Assembly: GCF_000312485.1 (NCBI RefSeq)
Contig: NZ_HE997643.1
Coordinates: 672,806 to 736,805, forward strand
DNA: 64,000 nucleotides
From: Yersinia massiliensis CCUG 53443
Lineage (GTDB): Bacteria; Pseudomonadota; Gammaproteobacteria; Enterobacterales; Enterobacteriaceae
Direction: 5' to 3'
Shown: piece after piece, positions 16,568-24,812 of the stretch
Position numbering within the stretch: the first letter of the stretch is position 1
Layout of the letters: each line of letters starts with the position of its first letter
Notes under the pieces: model-generated
The model's input: only the letters and a program-made list of their open reading frames with translations
What the model was told of the DNA's origin: nothing
Database searches by the model: none
Position numbers and translations under genes: made by a program

Positions 16568-17638
16568 ATGCAAAAAATTGGTGATATACCGAATACGCGT
16601 GCGGACAGTAATGGTGAATTTACTGACGGCAATGTTGCGGGTGGAGTGCCGCCAACGATATTACCTGCAGAGTGGTTGAATACTATTCAGCGCGAATTAA
16701 TTAACATCTTAGCGGCCGCTGATATTGAGCCAGACAGCGATCAATTCGATCAGGTCGCCACTGCTGTCTCTAAATTAATCACTGACGGCGGCTTTTTAAA
16801 AACAGTCAATAACCTTGTGGAAATTAAAAACGCCGGTGCTGTCGCGCTTGCGACTACTCTCGCCAACCTTGGTTTAAGCGACGTTGCACATTTACCGCAA
16901 TTAACGGGCGTAGTGGGTACCTCCCGTAATGCAAAGATGAGCGTTACGGCTGCATCTGCAACGGCTACTTTCACCGCTGATGAGTTAATAGTGCAAACGG
17001 CATTAGGTGGACGCCAATACAAGCTGAGCAATTTCAATAAAACAATTAACCTTGCGGCCATCGGCGCTGGCGGCATGGACACTGGCACCGCTCCGACAGC
17101 TGGCTTTGTCGCGCTATATGCGATCTATAATCCCACAACTCAAGCATCAGCATTACTTGCAGTTAATGCTACGTCAGTGCTAGCCCCAGAAGTATATTCT
17201 GGCGCAAATATGCCAGCTGGTTACACGGCGTCTGCGCTGGTCAGTGTGTGGCGAACTGCAAGCAGTCAATTCACTATTGGTTACCAGTTAGATAGGAATG
17301 TTTCATTCCCTAGGATCACAGTACTAACAACGACAACGGGAACGACTCCGCTATTGCCGATAAACATGCCAAATTACATACCCATAAATGCTAAATATTG
17401 CAGCGTAGATGGCGCACTGGGAACATCGACTAACGGTGTTGTTGGAATGGCATTTTCCTCATCCATTTCAGGGATCGGCTGGAGAGCAAGCGCTATGACA
17501 ACTACGGCGGGTTATGGGTCTACTTATGTAGCCATGAATATTCCAATAATTACCACGCAAACCATTTATTACTCAGCTAATGCAACGGTTGGTACTTTGA
17601 GTAATTTTGCGTCTAATTTAGTTGACTATGTATTTTAA
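16568..17638 (+). CDS. Phage tail fibre protein
   Basis: A 356-aa fibre at the end of the tail operon. Its N-terminus (QKIGDIPNTRADSNGEFTDGNVAGGVPPTILPAEWLNTIQREL) is the common attachment module of P2/Mu-like fibres. The rest is Ala/Thr/Gly-rich beta sequence ending in a variable Tyr-rich C-terminus that would bind the receptor. It is short compared with typical fibres of 500 or more residues. GAGG lies 7 bases before the ATG. The receptor is unknown. Confidence 0.88.
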   Translation: MQKIGDIPNTRADSNGEFTDGNVAGGVPPTILPAEWLNTIQRELINILAAADIEPDSDQFDQVATAVSKLITDGGFLKTVNNLVEIKNAGAVALATTLANLGLSDVAHLPQLTGVVGTSRNAKMSVTAASATATFTADELIVQTALGGRQYKLSNFNKTINLAAIGAGGMDTGTAPTAGFVALYAIYNPTTQASALLAVNATSVLAPEVYSGANMPAGYTASALVSVWRTASSQFTIGYQLDRNVSFPRITVLTTTTGTTPLLPINMPNYIPINAKYCSVDGALGTSTNGVVGMAFSSSISGIGWRASAMTTTAGYGSTYVAMNIPIITTQTIYYSANATVGTLSNFASNLVDYVF

Positions 17639-17650
17639 CTGGAGAGTTGT

Positions 17651-17842
17651 ATGGATATTTTATATGTGCAATTTTCTGATGAAACAGAAACGGTAATTGT
17701 TAGCTGGTTCTGTTGCCAACAATCACCGGAATATTATCCTTTCTTAGGTGAGGTTTATGCGAATGACCTAAGATATATTACATATTTTGAATCTCTTCCT
17801 GAGTGGTTAAAACCACTATTGCCTCAACCTATATATCTGTAG
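17651..17842 (+). CDS. Small protein after the tail fibre, unknown
   Basis: A 63-aa acidic, aromatic-rich protein starting 12 bases after the fibre stop with GGAGAG in front of its ATG. I do not recognise a family. Its place is that of fibre-assembly (Tfa) or fibre-tip proteins, so a helper role is possible. It contains a CC pair and ends PEWLKPLLPQPIYL. Confidence 0.7.
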   Translation: MDILYVQFSDETETVIVSWFCCQQSPEYYPFLGEVYANDLRYITYFESLPEWLKPLLPQPIYL

Positions 17843-17846
17843 GTTT

Positions 17847-17866
17847 ACCGGGCAGAAATGCCCGGT
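17847..17866. terminator. Hairpin between convergent fibre and acyltransferase genes
   Basis: A perfect 8-bp stem (ACCGGGCA/TGCCCGGT) with a GAAA tetraloop lies between the last tail gene and the convergent acyltransferase gene. T-rich but interrupted sequence follows on the + strand, so it can end the late operon, and possibly the opposing transcript. Confidence 0.7.
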
Positions 17867-17868
17867 TA

Positions 17869-19920
17869 TTATTTGAAAATATTACCATGCATCTTAAGGT
17901 ATTCAATGCCAAATTGATGCGATGAGTAATCAGTTAAATGTGACCAATCCCTATACACTGGATAGCCATTAATGTCAGTTTTACATACCCCATATGAGCA
18001 TTGTAAATCATACATGTTTATTAAAATCAAGGAGGGAAATTTATTTTTTAACCGTAAAAACATATTATCAATCCAAATCCTATATTCGTCATTTTTATAA
18101 TTACTATCGAAATCACAGGTGGATTTTAATAATCCTCTTGATTTGTATTTTTTCATCACACAAGAGTTTTGCTGTATTTTTGCCAGATAGAATGGATTTT
18201 GATTTTTATAAGCGTCAAAAATCCCAATGATAATAATTGGTTTAGCGTTGCTATTAATTATTTTAGTTATGGAGCTTTCAAGGCCTTTCTCTAGTTTTTC
18301 CTTTGCTTCGCTGGTGTTGGCGTGATTTTCATTACTAATATATCTCCCCCACGTTTGACTTATAATTACATACTGATAAAACCCTTTTTTGATTTTATTG
18401 TAATTTTCATTAGTTCTATTTGTACATATATTTTTTTCAGATTGGTCATCACCTTCTACAGCTAAGCATCCACCAAGTGAACTTGATTCTAGTGATATAT
18501 CATTATCTTTAATGATAGATTTCAAAAACTGCCAAGAATGATCAGAGTATGAGTCTCCCATGACAATCGCGGATTTTTTTGCACCTTCATTAAAGTGACA
18601 ATTAAGCATTATTAGACTTAAATTCTCTACATTGCATTCATTTCTTATTCTATCCATCCAATTGTATTGAATCGTTTTATTATGAACCAAGTTCATATAG
18701 CTGCTACCTAATCGCGATGGAATGCCACTAGTAGCTTTACTTTTATGGTTCAGTGTGGATACAAGGATATATGGTATTAGCACTAAAACTACTAAAGTTT
18801 TCCAGAAGGATAATGAGTTTTTTCTTCTGAAAAAAGTCTCAACATAACGATAAGAGACAATAGCAAGTAAGAATGATAAAAGTAACGCTAATGAAATAAC
18901 GCTCCATGTTTCTTTTATACTTAAGTTTCTAATAAATGCCAGTACCGGCCAATGCCAAATATAAAGAGAGTATGATATCAACCCAATGAATACTATTGGT
19001 TTTATCGATAATATTTTTGTTGCAAATCCTTTGTTTTTTGAACCACCCAAATATATTAAAATGGCAGAGCTTAAACAAACGAGTAGTGCATATTTATTTG
19101 GGTAGAATTCCAAGATTCCATCACTAACCCCGATAGAAACAATGATTACAATGCAACAAAGCCCAATAATCGAGTTTAACCACTGCGGAATTCTGTCAAC
19201 CTTCAACACTCCAATAACAGCTAAAGACGAACCAATGAGCATTTCAAAAATACGACCTGAAAAACTATAGTAATACTTCAGTGAGTTTTTATCGTTAAAA
19301 ACAAAAGATAGTTTTTTTATTCCATCTAATTGTATTGAAACTGATCCGAAATGAATTCCTATTATCATCAATGCTGTGAATGGTAATATCCAATATGCCC
19401 ATTTTTTAATGTTAAGTAATTTAAAAAATAAAAACATTAAAAAAGGAAGCAATAAATACCATTGCCACTCAACAGATAATGACCACGTATGCAACAAAGG
19501 CATAATGCTTACATCATCTGTAAAATATCCATTATTCAAATTGGAGAAGTAATTGTTTGATAAAAATGAAGATGCGTATCTTAGACTGTTGGTATACTTT
19601 AAATAATCATCAGGAAGATATGTTAGTGTAGTTATTATTGTTACTACAATTATTAAAGCTATGAAAACAGGCTGTAATCTCCATAATCTTCTTTTGAAAA
19701 AATCAACAAAAGAAAAATCACCCTTTTCTAATCCATTTTTTATACCTAATGTTATCAAATATCCTGATATTACAAAAAAAACATCTACACCAACAAATCC
19801 AGAATTAACACCGAATATTTTAGCATGAAAGAATAAAACAAGTATTACAGCTACGGCCCTTAATCCATCAATATCAGGTCGGTATTTGGGGTGCGACAAA
19901 TGAGGGGTGATTTCTTTCAT
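17869..19920 (-). CDS. Acyltransferase-3/SGNH fusion, candidate O-antigen acetylase
   Basis: A 683-aa inner membrane protein. The N-terminal acyltransferase-3 domain starts RPDIDGLRAVAVILVLFFHA with the expected catalytic His, followed by GVDVFFVISGYLI and HTWSLSVEWQWYLLLP over about 10 membrane segments. The C-terminal extracytoplasmic SGNH domain has GDSYSDH and a DWSHLT Asp-His pair. This OafA/OafB architecture acetylates lipopolysaccharide sugars. The gene is markedly AT-rich compared with the phage genes, lacks an obvious Shine-Dalgarno site and lies antisense at the end of the tail operon, the usual place for lysogenic conversion genes. Confidence 0.88.
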   Translation of the reverse strand: MKEITPHLSHPKYRPDIDGLRAVAVILVLFFHAKIFGVNSGFVGVDVFFVISGYLITLGIKNGLEKGDFSFVDFFKRRLWRLQPVFIALIIVVTIITTLTYLPDDYLKYTNSLRYASSFLSNNYFSNLNNGYFTDDVSIMPLLHTWSLSVEWQWYLLLPFLMFLFFKLLNIKKWAYWILPFTALMIIGIHFGSVSIQLDGIKKLSFVFNDKNSLKYYYSFSGRIFEMLIGSSLAVIGVLKVDRIPQWLNSIIGLCCIVIIVSIGVSDGILEFYPNKYALLVCLSSAILIYLGGSKNKGFATKILSIKPIVFIGLISYSLYIWHWPVLAFIRNLSIKETWSVISLALLLSFLLAIVSYRYVETFFRRKNSLSFWKTLVVLVLIPYILVSTLNHKSKATSGIPSRLGSSYMNLVHNKTIQYNWMDRIRNECNVENLSLIMLNCHFNEGAKKSAIVMGDSYSDHSWQFLKSIIKDNDISLESSSLGGCLAVEGDDQSEKNICTNRTNENYNKIKKGFYQYVIISQTWGRYISNENHANTSEAKEKLEKGLESSITKIINSNAKPIIIIGIFDAYKNQNPFYLAKIQQNSCVMKKYKSRGLLKSTCDFDSNYKNDEYRIWIDNMFLRLKNKFPSLILINMYDLQCSYGVCKTDINGYPVYRDWSHLTDYSSHQFGIEYLKMHGNIFK

Positions 19921-20027
19921 TGTTTTTTTAATGCCTTTTCAAATCGCTAAAATTTTATTTATTTATGAAGTTATGTAATGCAATACTAAGCGACTAGCTA
20001 CGACTCTTCAAGGCTTTCCAACTACGT

Positions 20028-20174
20028 CTAAGGTTGAAACCAATCATCAGCGCTTTCCCACGTTTCTTGCAAAATATCCTGAATCACTTCTTTGTCGTGA
20101 GGCAGCCTACCTAACACGCTCCACCCGTGGATCAGCGTCTTCAGATGCCAGAAGTTGACGTTATGGAGCCACCG
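20028..20174 (-). pseudogene. 3' fragment of a dinI-like gene
   Basis: The frame ends DKEVIQDILQETWESADDWFQP; the stretch ILQETWESADDWF is identical to the end of E. coli DinI, an SOS protein that modulates RecA filaments. The frame is open for only 48 codons back to a stop at 20175 and has no ATG or ribosome binding site. Just upstream in another frame ANGGSITSTSGI could be the preceding DinI strand, implying an additional small lesion. A matching DinI-like 5' start lies at 23578 on the same strand. Confidence 0.7.
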
Positions 20175-20197
20175 TTAGCTGAAATGTAAAACACAAA

Positions 20198-20217
20198 ACC
20201 GGGCTTAATCGCCCGGT
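20198..20217. terminator. Bidirectional terminator after the autotransporter gene
   Basis: A 7-bp stem (ACCGGGC/GCCCGGT) with a 6-base loop has TTTTGTGTTTT on the - strand and a T7 run on the + strand. It lies 28 bases past the autotransporter stop. The stem is the same sequence as at 17847-17866. Confidence 0.8.
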
Positions 20218-20244
20218 CTGATTTTTTTAATTCTACAGTTAGTA

Positions 20245-23112
20245 TTAGAAGTTATATTTAATTCCTAACATCACTGCCGTATCGCTGTAACCTTTATTGC
20301 CTACTTGCTGTCCAACATTACCCCAGACATTCAGTTGCTTATCCAATTGCCCCTCAACGCCCACTTTTACTTCTGCAACATTTGCTGCACCGTCTTGTTT
20401 CACGGTCACGCCATCCATAGTAGTACCAAAATCTTTAGTATTGTGGATCCAATTTGCTTCAATAAACGGCTGGAATACACGGTCTTTACCTTTATCCTGA
20501 TCGCTGTAGCCGTTCATAAAGGCTTTTACACCCAAGCGGGTCTGAATATTACCATCACCTTCTCCAGACACATTCGTTCCGTTGGCTTCTTTATGGTCGT
20601 CAGCTTTCACACCCATCCAGGTAACTTGTGCTTTAGGCTGAATGAAGTAGGTGGCATTCTTAGCGGCATTTTCACCCACTTTAAAGGTATAACCACTTTC
20701 GACAGAAGCTGTTACCCCTTTGGATTTGTATTCTTCAGCAGCTAAGTTCTGGCCTTCAACGTTATTGTTGAACCAACTGTATTGCACCCAACTGTCGACA
20801 TACAGTCCAGATTTATCTTCGTTGTTAGCGTACCAAGTTCCGTATACACCCGCGCTGTAACCGTCGATTGAACCTTTAGCATTGTAGCCGGATATCCGTG
20901 AAACAGTTGTACTTTTGCTATTACCATACCCAGCCATAACACCCAGATGGAAGCGGTCCGTTGTATTGCTGCTCCATTGAGCTATATCACCGCCCAATTG
21001 CACGACATAACGATTAGCCTGTGTACTCAGTTGGCCTGATGTATCACGAGAGCGGTTGTGACCACCTTCGTTACGTAACCACAGGCTGGTTACTTTACGT
21101 TCACCAGTCAGCACATCAATGTACTGGGTTTCACCTAAACGATCATGCAAACGTGTGACGAACATATTATTTGCAGCTGCTAGGTTAGCTGTGTAACTGC
21201 TTGCTTCCGGACGTTCTACCATCAGGGATGGTTCAATTGGATCAGTAGGGTCAATTGGATCAGTAGGGTCAACTGGATTAGTAAGGTCAACTGCGTTGGT
21301 CAAATACCAGTTACTGGCATTGGTCCCTACCCCCCTAATCAGAGAGTAATCATAAGCTCCTGCCACAATACGACCATTCTTTACGAACTCGCCATCAGAT
21401 AATCCATTAACCTGAATCAATTCAATGCCATTTAGTGTTGTAGCCCCAGACCCACCCGCATTAGTTACACTGACGAGGGTATTACCAGACGTATTACCCT
21501 CTACAATCATTTTATCGGTTATTGAGTTGTCGTCATTTAATTCAGTGTTAAATAGCAAGTTGCCATTGTTGCCGATATAGTCTCCATGCACGGTTAGTAC
21601 ATCACCAGCGACTGGATTTGAAAAGTTAATTGTGCCAGCGTTCGTTAACCCAGCGACATCAGAACTGGCTACCATATTCCAAATAGCGCTATTATCAAGA
21701 GTCACCTGACCACCATTACGCGCAAGACCATTCCATTGGGTATTGCTAAGACTAAGATTAGCTTGGCTACCCATACCTGCTTGTATATCACCATTTAAAA
21801 CCATATCGCTAGCATCGAGATTAACGATACCAAAATTCGTTAGGGCAGCGTCGGTATCTGCATTTATTAATATGCCATTGTTAATAACGCTACTGTTATT
21901 TAGTGTGGCATTTATTGTTCCACCGAGAGCATTAAACGTTTTACCATTCTGACTGTGTATATTCACATTTTGCTGATTCATAGTCATAATTGCTTGTGTA
22001 TTGCTATTCACTGCATCAGCATTATTTCCACTGGTAGTGATATTAGTATTAGTTACATTGACTGTAGTTCCACTATCATTAGCCTGAATAGCATACGCAT
22101 TGTTACCCACAGTACTGATGTTATTGCCCTGACTATTAATCGAACTGGCAGAGTTTGCCATCATCGCCACAGCACCATTATTGGTGGTGCTGACATCACT
22201 ACCAGAAATATCAACTTGTCCGCCTAAAACTGCTTGGATAGCAGTATTGTTAGCGCCGAGAGTTTTAACCGATGTTCCTGGATTAATAACGATTCTTCCG
22301 CCTGGACCTCTTGCACTCACAGCAGTTGCCTGATGAGTGATAATTTGTGTATTTCCACTCACAGTCGCTAAAGATGAGCCATTACCATTAAGTTCAGAAG
22401 ATACCAGTGCAGTACCAGCCCCAAAGGTTTCAAGGGTACTGTCGATGATATCGAATTGAGTATTTGCACTATTTGTTGTTTCAACGAAGACCGCAGCTGC
22501 AGAGGCACCACTGGTACTGGCGTATGAACCAGTCATGCTCCCCCGAGAACCATTTGCTATTTGTAAAGCACTAGCACTTGAGCCCAGGTAAGCACCTGTT
22601 GTTGTCAATGTAGAGTTATTGACAATTACTGAACTATTATTAGCAGCTATGCCCTTACCACCCGCACCTGTTACTGAAACTGTGCTGTTGTTCAGTGTGA
22701 TTTGGCTATTAGAAACAAGCGATATGCCGGACGCGCTTGTTCCTGAAACCGAAATATTTGCATCATCTAAGTTAACACTGGCTGCGGTTTGAGCATATAC
22801 TCCGTGTGAGCCAATACCTGTCGTTGTTAATATACTTCCGAGCAGAAAATCAACGCGTGATCCCGTCCCAGAGGCATATAACGCATCGGCGGCATTACCA
22901 CCAGTAATTAATGTGATACCACCGTCAGCAATTAATATTCCGCCATTTGATACCACCGCAGCATGCCCAGAAAAATCGTTAATCAAGCCACTATCTACAA
23001 CGGTACCGTCTGGAGTATTAATTGTCGTACCGTTTACTACAATTTGAGCTGAAGAAGTGGTTGTTATTGTCGTTAACGCGATGGCAATCAACGTTTTTTT
23101 AAAGATTGGCAT
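20245..23112 (-). CDS. Autotransporter (type Va) with passenger and beta-barrel
   Basis: A 955-aa protein. It begins with a signal peptide (MPIFKKTLIAIALTTITTTSSA), followed by a long Ser/Thr/Asn/Gly passenger (about 30-620) built of short beta-helix repeats such as VNNSTLTTTGA and a helix-ending domain (650 onward). A Pro-Asp linker made of DPTDPI repeats lies near 620-645. The C-terminal 270 residues form the barrel (TSLWLRNEGGHNRS, then GVMAGYGNS, ending VMLGIKYNF with terminal Phe). The passenger has no protease motif and looks like an adhesin. GAG lies 9 bases before the ATG. It is inside the prophage, between two dinI-like fragments. Confidence 0.93.
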   Translation of the reverse strand: MPIFKKTLIAIALTTITTTSSAQIVVNGTTINTPDGTVVDSGLINDFSGHAAVVSNGGILIADGGITLITGGNAADALYASGTGSRVDFLLGSILTTTGIGSHGVYAQTAASVNLDDANISVSGTSASGISLVSNSQITLNNSTVSVTGAGGKGIAANNSSVIVNNSTLTTTGAYLGSSASALQIANGSRGSMTGSYASTSGASAAAVFVETTNSANTQFDIIDSTLETFGAGTALVSSELNGNGSSLATVSGNTQIITHQATAVSARGPGGRIVINPGTSVKTLGANNTAIQAVLGGQVDISGSDVSTTNNGAVAMMANSASSINSQGNNISTVGNNAYAIQANDSGTTVNVTNTNITTSGNNADAVNSNTQAIMTMNQQNVNIHSQNGKTFNALGGTINATLNNSSVINNGILINADTDAALTNFGIVNLDASDMVLNGDIQAGMGSQANLSLSNTQWNGLARNGGQVTLDNSAIWNMVASSDVAGLTNAGTINFSNPVAGDVLTVHGDYIGNNGNLLFNTELNDDNSITDKMIVEGNTSGNTLVSVTNAGGSGATTLNGIELIQVNGLSDGEFVKNGRIVAGAYDYSLIRGVGTNASNWYLTNAVDLTNPVDPTDPIDPTDPIEPSLMVERPEASSYTANLAAANNMFVTRLHDRLGETQYIDVLTGERKVTSLWLRNEGGHNRSRDTSGQLSTQANRYVVQLGGDIAQWSSNTTDRFHLGVMAGYGNSKSTTVSRISGYNAKGSIDGYSAGVYGTWYANNEDKSGLYVDSWVQYSWFNNNVEGQNLAAEEYKSKGVTASVESGYTFKVGENAAKNATYFIQPKAQVTWMGVKADDHKEANGTNVSGEGDGNIQTRLGVKAFMNGYSDQDKGKDRVFQPFIEANWIHNTKDFGTTMDGVTVKQDGAANVAEVKVGVEGQLDKQLNVWGNVGQQVGNKGYSDTAVMLGIKYNF
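21233..21286. repeat. Three 18-bp tandem repeats in the autotransporter linker
   Basis: Three units of about TCAATTGGATCAGTAGGG encode the DPTDPI linker repeats on the - strand. The first two copies are identical and the third has changes. Copy number could vary by slippage and change the linker length. Confidence 0.85.
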
Positions 23113-23404
23113 GGGGATTTTCTCGATGTAAGTAATTTTTGCAGGATTTAAATTAATAAGTGACGTTGCTTTATCATTAAAATAAATTAATGTTATTTTA
23201 ATAATGGTTATTAACTCTAATTAATATATGGTGTTGGCAGTTCTTTAATATTATTGTTTTGTATTCTAAATATGTGCATGTTGTTATACTTGATAGTCGC
23301 GCATCATACACACTATTGCTAGGCTATCTATATGGGATTTAGCGCCCATTTGCGTAGGATTTTTCCTGTTTTTTTTAAATTTAAGCAAAGTGATAAAATT
23401 TCCA
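23113..23404. other. AT-rich leader of the autotransporter gene
   Basis: About 290 bases with no gene. It is very AT-rich and should hold the autotransporter promoter reading leftward. I see no clear regulator site or convincing -35/-10 pair. One junction of the insertion into the dinI-like gene should lie between here and about 23545. Confidence 0.5.
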
Positions 23405-23578
23405 CTACGAATGTCGATTGGAGTGTGTCTTTATATTAATTTTATTAATTTCAATGAAAACAATATTAGTATGGTAGTGTTGTTGGTATATATCAAGATT
23501 GAAGGAAAAAAAATAGAGCAGACTGGATTGATATAGATTTACAGTGCATTTATCTATCGTCATATCAATACGCAGCAT
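23405..23578 (-). pseudogene. 5' start of a dinI-like gene running into foreign sequence
   Basis: An ATG with an excellent site (AAGGGGA, 5 bases away) begins MLRIDMTIDK, the typical start of phage DinI-like proteins. After about ten residues the resemblance ends and the frame continues through AT-rich, low-quality coding sequence for 47 further codons. It begins 10 bases after the stop of the LexA-controlled 91-aa gene, so the two formed an SOS operon. The matching DinI C-terminus lies 3.4 kb further along the same strand, beyond the autotransporter gene. Confidence 0.6.
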
Positions 23579-23588
23579 AAATTCCCCT

Positions 23589-23864
23589 TCAACTGTGATA
23601 GCGGGTTTTGGTGTTAATGTCCTCAATACCCGATTCGATGTAATCCACGTGCCTCTGTAGTTCGCGGATGAGCTTCTTGGCGGCATCTAAGCGGATTATT
23701 ACTTGCTGGTCAGGGTAGTTCTCAGGTTCAATCTGCCTGAACCCAGTTAGGGTATCAGTGAAGGATGAGCGCATTATGATGAACTCACCAAAGGCGCTGT
23801 GAGCTGTCTCAAATGAAGTCAGTTCCCTCATTCCTGTGAATTCATCTTTAGGATTTCTTGCCAT
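23589..23864 (-). CDS. SOS-controlled phage protein of unknown function
   Basis: A 91-aa protein with no family that I recognise. The start at 23864 is chosen because AAGGGTG lies 5 bases upstream, while an in-frame ATG five codons earlier has no site. The second half ([28 protein letters not shown]) is an amphipathic helix pair that loosely recalls BssS-like small regulators. A LexA box ends 18 bases upstream, so expression should follow DNA damage. Near the prophage right end this is where some phages place SOS-induced antirepressors such as Tum of 186; that role is only a hypothesis. Confidence 0.8.
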
Positions 23865-23881
23865 ACAAACACCCTTCATTT

Positions 23882-23901
23882 AACTGTTTGTATATACAGT
23901 A
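23882..23901 (-). promoter_or_regulatory. LexA (SOS) box
   Basis: AACTGTTTGTATATACAGTA contains a perfect CTG-N10-CAG and differs from the E. coli consensus at three bases of 20. It lies just upstream of the 91-aa gene start on the - strand, where bound LexA would block its promoter. Confidence 0.85.
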
Positions 23902-24003
23902 TTGAATTTTATTTCAGTTGGGAAGTCTTTCTGCAAAACTATTTTTCTTTACTTAATAATCATATAGTTACGATAGCTGGTTTTGCTAAGAAAAATGAAA
24001 TAA

Positions 24004-24046
24004 AAAAGCCAGAAACCACTTTGGAATCATTTGGTTGCTGGCTTTT
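24004..24046. terminator. Terminator at the prophage right boundary
   Basis: AAAAGCCAG pairs with CTGGCTTTT, extended inward by AACCA/TGGTT after one mismatch. A-runs on the left and T-runs on the right make it usable in both directions. It separates the SOS module from the icd fragment and probably is the phage's last element. Confidence 0.7.
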
Positions 24047-24054
24047 GGTCTATC

Positions 24055-24221
24055 TACTGTTGCGTCATATGGGCTGGTTCGAAGCGGCTGATTTGATTAT
24101 CAAAGGCACCGAAGGCGCTATTCAGGCTAAGACAGTGACTTACGATTTCGAACGTCTGATGGACGGCGCTAAACTGTTGAAATGCAGCGAATTTGGCGAC
24201 GCCATTATTCAGCATATGTAA
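24055..24221 (+). pseudogene. icd: Displaced 3' end of icd; prophage attachment-site side
   Basis: The frame encodes [20 protein letters not shown] and continues through [18 protein letters not shown] to the stop. This is the C-terminus of isocitrate dehydrogenase, nearly identical to E. coli Icd. No start or rest of the gene is present; upstream sequence changes abruptly to the phage terminator. Phage 21 and element e14 integrate in the icd 3' end, supply a replacement end and leave the original 3' piece at the far side. The intact icd should lie on the same strand left of the window. Confidence 0.92.
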
Positions 24222-24243
24222 TTGCATATTGAGTGCAATATCT

Positions 24244-24265
24244 CACGGAGGCTTCGGCTTCCGTG
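24244..24265 (+). terminator. Native icd terminator
   Basis: A 9-bp stem (CACGGAGGC/GCTTCCGTG, one G-T pair) around a TTCG tetraloop, followed by TGTTCTT, 22 bases after the icd stop. It has stayed with the displaced icd end. Confidence 0.8.
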
Positions 24266-24629
24266 TGTTCTTAATGCCCGCCTAACTGCCCCTGAAAAAC
24301 CTTTCTGCATTTGTACGAATAGTCTGCCAGCACCCGAACAGCCGAATTAATCCAGCTATGACCCCGGATCATCATTAACTGAATATGAAGTGCCTGAGTT
24401 CGCTGGCACTACATGGGAGGATAGTGGGTTGTATGCACTGGTTCTCAATCATTACTGTAATACGTAAAAATAATAAGAATCATTATCAACATGGAGTAAA
24501 CAAATAAGATAATTTCATTGATTACGAAAACTAATGAATCAATGATTGGGGCGGCTATTGCAAGTGATTAAAAGCAATGCTCGTATCGTCCATCACTTTG
24601 GGGGGCGACTAATCAAGGAGGAAGTTACG
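24266..24629. other. Non-coding stretch between icd fragment and Fur-linked small gene
   Basis: No convincing gene. The only clear signal is the Fur box at 24469-24487. The 140 bases between that box and the small gene start could be a leader or hold a small RNA, but I see no terminator inside it. Confidence 0.5.
24469..24487 (+). promoter_or_regulatory. Fur box
   Basis: AATAATAAGAATCATTATC matches the 19-base Fur consensus at 16 positions, including the whole right half. The next gene on the + strand starts at 24630. Iron-loaded Fur would repress this unit. Confidence 0.75.
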
Positions 24630-24812
24630 ATGGAATATATTTTAAGCTTATTGTTATTTAGTGCGATTCCGGTATCTCAGGGCCCTATGGTTCAACCATG
24701 TAATTCATCCACCATGTTGGAGGCACGTTGTATTGTTGATGAATTAGGGCCAGATGTTGGCTCTGATGAGTATAAACGCTGCCAAGCTAGAGGCGGATGC
24801 AATTATCATTAA
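24630..24812 (+). CDS. Small orphan protein, possibly exported, behind a Fur box
   Basis: A 60-aa protein. AAGGAGGAAG ends 6 bases before the ATG, close to ideal, which is why this start is preferred over an upstream in-frame ATG at 24546 without a site. The N-terminus MEYILSLLLFSAIPVSQG is hydrophobic like a short signal or membrane anchor; the rest has four Cys (PCNSS, ARCIVDE, KRCQARGGC), suggesting disulfides or metal binding outside the cytoplasm. I recognise no family. A 7-bp hairpin (24823-24842) without T-run follows. Confidence 0.6.
   Translation: MEYILSLLLFSAIPVSQGPMVQPCNSSTMLEARCIVDELGPDVGSDEYKRCQARGGCNYH

What the first reader, a model, noticed from the sequence alone, without database searches (positions are those of the whole stretch)
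20028..23578. A phage dinI-like SOS gene appears split by the autotransporter gene
The start of a DinI-like protein (MLRIDMTIDK, strong ribosome site, directly after an SOS-controlled gene) lies at 23578 on the - strand. The end of a DinI-like protein (ILQETWESADDWF, identical to E. coli DinI) lies at 20174-20028 on the same strand. Between them is a complete 955-aa autotransporter gene with its own terminator. The simplest reading is that a 3.3-kb autotransporter cassette was inserted into the prophage dinI gene. Another reading is loss and replacement of DNA around two separate dinI copies.
Basis: partly seen in the sequence, partly recalled or inferred. Interest (0 to 1): 0.75.

Follow-up and report, generated by a model that had tools for sequence, protein, structure and literature searches.

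The report
Two dinI scraps flanking an autotransporter
Two pieces of a phage DNA-damage gene (dinI) flank a surface-protein gene in a Yersinia-type prophage, but related prophages suggest that they come from two separate recombination events and not from one gene cut in half by an insertion, so this is ordinary prophage mosaicism with one testable twist: the surface-protein gene may now sit behind a DNA-damage switch.

Summary
A 10-codon dinI start (23578-23549, -) follows a small gene with a LexA-type box. A C-terminal dinI piece (20128-20028, -; Pfam DinI E=1.4e-11) lies on the other side of an intact 955-aa autotransporter (AT) gene. A single insertion is disfavoured. (1) The dinI-start/AT junction (J2) is present, with no DinI domain found in the record, in two other prophage records: L069 (97%, contiguous over 20187-24812) and L070 (80%, AT dS about 0.9). 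J2 therefore looks old and independent of the tail. (2) Between the AT terminator and the dinI tail lies ~60 nt of the 3' end of a convergent tail-region gene, the neighbour that an AT of this family has in L071. The dinI tail meets it at 20127-20128 with a 2-nt overlap; no target duplication was found. (3) Same-family ATs (other passenger) lie just downstream of an intact dinI in L022 (this genome) and L071. Best reading: an old dinI-AT fusion was later joined, by illegitimate recombination, to another phage's acyltransferase-dinI end. The AT is under purifying selection, and no terminator-like site was found between it and the LexA box, so SOS-linked expression is possible but untested. Interest is low to moderate.

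The parts
23882..23901 (.). LexA-type (SOS) box in front of the small gene
   Evidence: 1 mismatch; core CTGTN8ACAG also in 5 of 9 loci scanned: L069, L064, L025, L028, L026; not in L022, L071, L070, L067 (L067 starts inside the small gene)
23589..23879 (-). 96-aa small phage gene, function unknown (phrog_17793), behind the LexA-type box
23549..23578 (-). dinI head: ATG and first 10 codons of a DinI-like gene
   Evidence: sequence; homology to intact dinI ends at 23549/23550
23548..23549 (.). junction J2: dinI head to autotransporter upstream region; shared with L069 and L070
23113..23548 (-). autotransporter upstream region, no terminator-like site on the - strand
   Evidence: shared with L069 and L070
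20245..23112 (-). intact 955-aa type Va autotransporter (passenger, AC_1 autochaperone, beta-barrel)
   Evidence: dN/dS 0.24 vs L069, 0.07 vs L070, 0.07 vs L086
20196..20219 (-). terminator-like hairpin; a similar hairpin stands beside tail or dinI genes in related prophages
20127..20189 (+). 3' end of a convergent gene of the phage tail region (stop TAA 20187-20189)
   Evidence: homology to L071 3740-3991 (-) and to L021, L064, L074; no Pfam match for the L071 83-aa frame, so 'tail' rests on position and likeness to the end of the L064 556-aa frame
20127..20128 (.). junction J1: dinI tail to tail-region gene end, 2-nt overlap (GT)
   Evidence: exact word found in one viral contig only, the window's own twin
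20028..20128 (-). dinI tail: last ~33 codons of a DinI-like gene
17869..19920 (-). O-antigen acetylase-type acyltransferase; 94% to a prophage of G008 where an intact dinI follows
24058..24300 (.). attachment-site copy derived from the 3' end of icd (isocitrate dehydrogenase); the other copy is at G000:C1:653292-653534 (94%)
   Evidence: ORF 24021-24221 (+) matches PF00180 Iso_dh positions 298-348 of 348, E=3.2e-6

Best explanation
The right end of this prophage is a mosaic made by at least two separate non-homologous joins. Step 1 (old; junction shown, route inferred): in an ancestral prophage with the order dinI then AT on one strand, as still seen in L022 and L071, the dinI gene lost all but its ribosome site and first 10 codons, which became joined to the AT upstream region (J2). 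This dinI-head/AT unit then spread and diverged (L069, L070). Step 2 (younger; junction shown, parents inferred): in the window's lineage another phage's end, carrying a tail fibre, an acyltransferase and a dinI, was joined within dinI (about codon 47) to the last ~20 codons of the tail-region gene beside the AT (J1), with a 2-nt overlap. A deletion between two prophages integrated in tandem at icd, or a crossover between co-resident phages, would give this order. The AT then appears to split one dinI, but the pieces come from two dinI genes. What it does now: this prophage has no whole dinI in the stretch seen; the AT is intact, under purifying selection, and may be read from the LexA-type promoter 0.8 kb upstream (inferred).
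For: Contiguous 97% match of window 20187-24812 to L069, with no DinI match in its 39-kb record. J2 with a decayed dinI head (28 of 37 nt identical to an intact dinI start) upstream of the AT in L070, 80% identical to the window over 20175-23557, with no DinI match in its 26-kb record. AT window vs L070: dS 0.90, dN/dS 0.07; vs L069: dS 0.037. Intact dinI directly upstream of same-family ATs in L022 and L071. Tail-region gene end, terminator and AT in one piece in L071, matching window 20118-21579 at 77%. Acyltransferase and part of the fibre 94% identical (16916-19943) in L025, where the next gene is an intact dinI. Junction alignment at 20127-20128. Exact J1 word: only the window's own viral-contig twin; exact J2 word: that twin and the L069 record. 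No word over 5 nt shared by 50-nt stretches around J1 and J2, direct or inverted.
Against: The two pieces do not overlap and lie in the order and orientation of one gene with ~110 nt missing, as an insertion with deletion would leave. L069 and L070 could have lost a dinI tail later, through replacement of their left flank, and virus records may be fragments. The tail's closest relatives (L036 91% over 94 nt; L028 91% over 79 nt) are not the acyltransferase donor L025 (86% over 50 nt), so a further break lies at about 19943-20028 and the number of steps is uncertain. Some prophages carry two dinI-family genes in tandem (G008, G014, G010), so the two pieces could also come from two genes of one phage. 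J1 is seen in one genome only and could not be checked on reads.
Confidence: 0.8

Rival explanations
1. One insertion: an AT cassette (with terminator and a scrap of tail-region gene from a donor like L071) was inserted into a single prophage dinI, deleting ~110 nt; L069 and L070 later lost the dinI tail when their left flanks were exchanged.
For: Order, orientation and non-overlap of the two pieces; a cassette from an L071-like donor would carry just such a scrap.
Against: J2 is already present at about 20% DNA divergence (L070) without a tail; 0 of 6 other AT loci examined have a dinI tail on the AT's 3' side (L022, L033, L069, L070, L071, L086); no target duplication or inverted ends; DNA around the head is 94% to L064, the tail only 87%.
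Confidence: 0.12
2. Assembly artefact at J1: the join of dinI tail and tail-region gene end is a misassembly between prophages of one genome.
For: The exact J1 word occurs only in this genome and its viral-contig twin, which may be the same assembly; the genome has other dinI and AT copies.
Against: J1 lies inside a 1,955,540-base contig; no other place in the genome matches across J1 in one piece; the overlap of the two sides is about 2 nt, too short to mislead an assembler (inference).
Confidence: 0.05
3. The dinI head is a functional leftover, for instance kept as a translated leader coupling the AT to the SOS operon.
For: The ribosome site, start and 10 codons are kept in the window and L069; the LexA core is kept in L069.
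Against: In L070 the head frame reaches a stop after about a dozen codons and no CTGTN8ACAG core was found in the 13.9-kb locus.
Confidence: 0.1

Closest known systems
Lambdoid/e14-like prophage ends with cargo genes (morons) and a dinI near the attachment site; Yersinia phage YeP1 as named relative
   Same: YeP1 has, after the tail fibre and two hypothetical genes, an annotated dinI and then the small gene, both on the - strand as here; 85% over 23550-23864 (small gene and dinI start), 88% over 50 nt of the dinI tail; e14-like tail gene names.
   Different: No AT or acyltransferase is annotated there in YeP1; in the window dinI exists only as two scraps.
Gifsy-1 dinI-gfoA operon (Salmonella)
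   [quoted passage not shown] 2011). That this promoter is LexA-controlled is recalled.
   Different: gfoA is an antirepressor; here the downstream gene would be a surface protein behind a dinI stub.
Chimeric phages made by recombination between resident prophages (E. coli O157 Sp5/Sp15)
   Same: New phages assembled from co-resident prophages (PMC2669165, passages read).
   Different: There the exchanged regions are described as highly homologous; J1 has a 2-nt overlap.
Type Va autotransporters with AC_1 autochaperone
   Same: Domain set.
   Different: Carried on a prophage; an 81%-identical homologue whose neighbours look non-phage by eye exists (L086).

Membership tests
DinI (PF06183) | Full DinI domain | tested here: not met
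   Only profile positions 36-63 of 63 in the tail; the head is 10 codons; these are gene remnants.
DinI (PF06183) | RecA-filament binding | not testable with these tools
   Needs an assay; unlikely for the fragments.
Type Va autotransporter | C-terminal beta-barrel and autochaperone | tested here: met
   PF03797 E=1.1e-45, PF18883 E=6.1e-29.
Type Va autotransporter | Intact reading frame under selection | tested here: met
   955 aa; dN/dS 0.07 vs L070 over 946 codons.
Type Va autotransporter | Secretion and surface display | not tested
   Needs an assay.
Transposition-type insertion cassette in dinI | Target duplication or inverted terminal repeats at the ends | tested here: not met
   50-nt stretches around J1 and J2 share only one 5-mer (TGGAT) direct and none inverted; 1665 of 2000 random pairs share a 5-mer. 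One 8-nt inverted pair lies near J2.
Transposition-type insertion cassette in dinI | Both ends specific to the insert; the empty site is the intact gene | tested here: not met
   J2 occurs without the tail piece (L069, L070); ~110 nt of dinI are missing.
Moron (phage cargo gene) | Own terminator, extra gene beside tail genes | tested here: met
Moron (phage cargo gene) | Own promoter | tested here: inconclusive
   Promoter-like hits do not exceed shuffles (13 vs mean 12.2).
SOS (LexA) regulon operon | LexA box upstream and no terminator before the AT | tested here: met
   Box at 23882-23901; no - strand terminator-like site between 23880 and 23112 by a simple scan.
SOS (LexA) regulon operon | Damage-induced transcription of the AT | not testable with these tools
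   Step referred.

The most novel reading that the evidence does not exclude
The old loss of dinI's 3' part placed a surface autotransporter directly behind a phage LexA-controlled promoter, so that DNA damage or prophage induction switches on a cell-surface protein; this fused unit then spread among prophages at different attachment sites.
Probability: 0.3. Interest if true: 0.5.

Novelty: new member of a known kind. Interest (0 to 1): 0.22.

Why it matters
It shows that two scraps of one gene family flanking a gene need not mean that the gene was inserted there: relatives date the two joins separately. It also gives a case of an adhesin-type cargo gene moving with a stub of an SOS operon, and so a concrete hypothesis about SOS-linked surface-protein expression.

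Tried and rejected
E. coli genomes: no match for the AT region, the head region or the tail region. The host is a Yersinia or close relative by inference (YeP phages; Y. rohdei AT relative at 47%); species not identified. Phage records: no match to the J1 region. Genus search with the AT 5' part and upstream: 2 of 25 genomes, the own one and G008, the latter match starting exactly at the ATG. A shared starting base of the tail-gene scraps in the window and L021 looked like a site-specific breakpoint, but L071 shows that the window scrap goes further back, so this was dropped. A common dinI breakpoint among truncated copies was looked for and not found: 6 of 84 DinI matches at E <= 0.01 in 25 genomes start at profile position 32 or later, with local-alignment starts at codons 44, 47, 50, 57, 60 and 64. 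AT loci L003-L007 (own genome) and L062 (Y. rohdei) were fetched but not examined gene by gene, so the count '0 of 6' covers only the six named. One search failed on a stop codon because I gave a wrong strand; it was repeated with the right one. Literature: searches gave, by their listings only, no paper that describes this arrangement; two papers were read in passages.

Full report
What was checked. The finding has two observations: a dinI start at 23578 (-) and a dinI end at 20174-20028 (-), with an autotransporter (AT) gene between. The dinI end is real from 20128 to 20028: 34 residues give a Pfam DinI match (positions 36-63 of 63, E=1.4e-11), a PHROG match to 'RecA filament binding protein DinI' (E=6e-7) and an alignment to PDB 1GHH residues 50-78. 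The start is short (10 codons), but it lies in DNA contiguous with intact dinI loci of related prophages, for example 94% over 23549-24221 in L064 and 86% over 23549-24287 in L026. Homology to intact dinI stops at 23549. The AT is complete (20245-23112; PF03797, AC_1).

Setting. The window is part of G000:C1 (672806-736805). Its nearest named relatives are Yersinia phages YeP1-3 and a Yersinia rohdei contig (AT relative at 47%), so it is probably a Yersinia; the species is not known. A 243-nt sequence at 24058-24300 recurs at C1:653292-653534 (94%), consistent with attachment-site copies ~43.6 kb apart; the frame 24021-24221 matches the last 51 positions of the isocitrate dehydrogenase family (PF00180, E=3.2e-6). 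YeP1 shows an undisturbed order: tail fibre, two hypothetical genes, then dinI and the small gene on the opposite strand.

Junction J2 (23549) looks older than the rest. A second prophage record, L069, is collinear with window 20187-24812 at 97% through the AT, the upstream region, the dinI head, the small gene and the attachment site, but no DinI match was found in its 39,010-nt record; left of the AT terminator it carries other phage debris and a tail-assembly-like gene. A third record, L070, is collinear at 80% over 20175-23557. Just upstream of J2 it still shows a decayed dinI start (28 of 37 nt identical to L064 dinI, p about 1e-9 under a simple binomial), again with no DinI match in 26,020 nt. 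L070 lies near what looks by eye like the 3' part of the tRNA-Pro seen in L021; no complete tRNA was found in it. Virus records can be fragments, so absence there is not proof. AT divergence between window and L070 is dS 0.90, dN/dS 0.07; between window and L069 dS 0.037, dN/dS 0.24; between window and L086 dS 1.03, dN/dS 0.07. J2 therefore predates the split of the window and L070 copies; the remaining escape for the insertion reading is that both L069 and L070 lost a tail later.

Junction J1 (20127-20128) is separate. Between the AT terminator (20219-20196) and the dinI tail lies the 3' end of a gene on the + strand, ending in TAA at 20187-20189. L071 has an 83-aa version ending alike, then the terminator, then an AT of the same family, matching window 20118-21579 in one piece (77%). 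That it is a tail gene is inferred from position and from likeness to the end of a larger tail-region frame in L064; the 83-aa frame has no Pfam match. On the other side, dinI homology (best L036, 91% over 94 nt) runs up to 20128. The switch occurs within a 2-nt overlap. The 50-nt stretches around J1 and J2 share one 5-mer only, while 1665 of 2000 random pairs share at least one, and they share no inverted word of 5 nt or more. The exact J1 word occurs in one viral contig, the window's own twin; the exact J2 word in that twin and in the L069 record.

Normal neighbours of this AT family. Of six other AT loci examined, two have an intact dinI directly upstream on the same strand (L022, in this very genome, and L071), two have only the dinI head upstream (L069, L070), one lies about 3.7 kb from a 48-nt dinI remnant and abuts a tail-fibre-assembly gene (L033; PF02413), and one has neighbours that look non-phage by eye (L086). 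None of the six has a dinI tail on the 3' side of the AT. Six further fetched AT loci (L003-L007, L062) were not examined in this way.

Source of the tail side. Window 16916-19943 (fibre end and acyltransferase) is 94% identical to L025 in G008, where an intact dinI follows. L025's own dinI matches the window tail at only 86% over 50 nt and is followed by a terminator-like sequence that the window lacks, so another break lies at about 19943-20028. L025 also has a second DinI-family gene right beside the first, as do places in G014 and G010. Partial dinI copies are not rare in this genus: 6 of 84 DinI matches in 25 genomes keep only the C-terminal part (profile start at 32 or later).

Interpretation. 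The simplest history that fits the loci seen is (a) loss of dinI's 3' part beside an AT that already lay downstream of it, giving the dinI-head/AT unit, and (b) a later illegitimate join of another phage's acyltransferase-dinI end to the tail-region gene end beside that AT. Deletion between tandem prophages at one attachment site would give (b) in one step; this is inferred. A single insertion with later loss of the tail in L069 and L070 remains possible but needs more steps.

Function. The AT is intact and selected. No terminator-like site was found on the - strand between the LexA-type box (23882-23901) and the AT start, so read-through from that promoter is possible. Gifsy-1 gives a precedent for a gene co-transcribed from a phage dinI promoter (PMC5322425, passages). 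Against it, L070, with the same AT type, showed no LexA core in the locus examined, and the AT may have its own promoter (one search is inconclusive).

Verdict.

Noticed in passing
window 20187-20300 vs G000:C1:1849333-1849445: The last ~114 nt of the AT gene and terminator are 98% identical to another AT of the same genome whose longer match is 79% overall: a likely gene-conversion tract.
   Followed up: partly
G000:C1:349247-349893 (L021 5248-5894) and L085 7948-8280: Beside a tRNA-Pro gene and a yejM-like gene (the latter named by eye), old prophage scars keep a dinI C-terminal scrap and, in G000, a 59-nt gene end 95% identical to window 20133-20191.
   Followed up: partly
L028 8538-8738 (G006): Another dinI truncation: the N-terminal half is missing and the rest follows the small SOS-type gene directly.
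   Followed up: partly
L025 10073-10252 and 10309-10540 (G008): Two DinI-family genes stand in tandem in this prophage; similar pairs appear in G014 and G010.
   Followed up: partly
window 23354-23369; L022 5122; L071 417; L070 5731: Upstream regions of different AT types share a small palindrome-like element (acaggaa...tcctac), about 175-260 nt before the likely AT start in L022 and the window; possible regulatory site.
   Followed up: partly
L064 1323-2022: An intact-dinI relative carries a HicA/HicB toxin-antitoxin pair (PF07927 E=1.1e-9, PF05534 E=3.5e-18) between dinI and the tail-region gene end, where L071 has an AT.
   Followed up: partly
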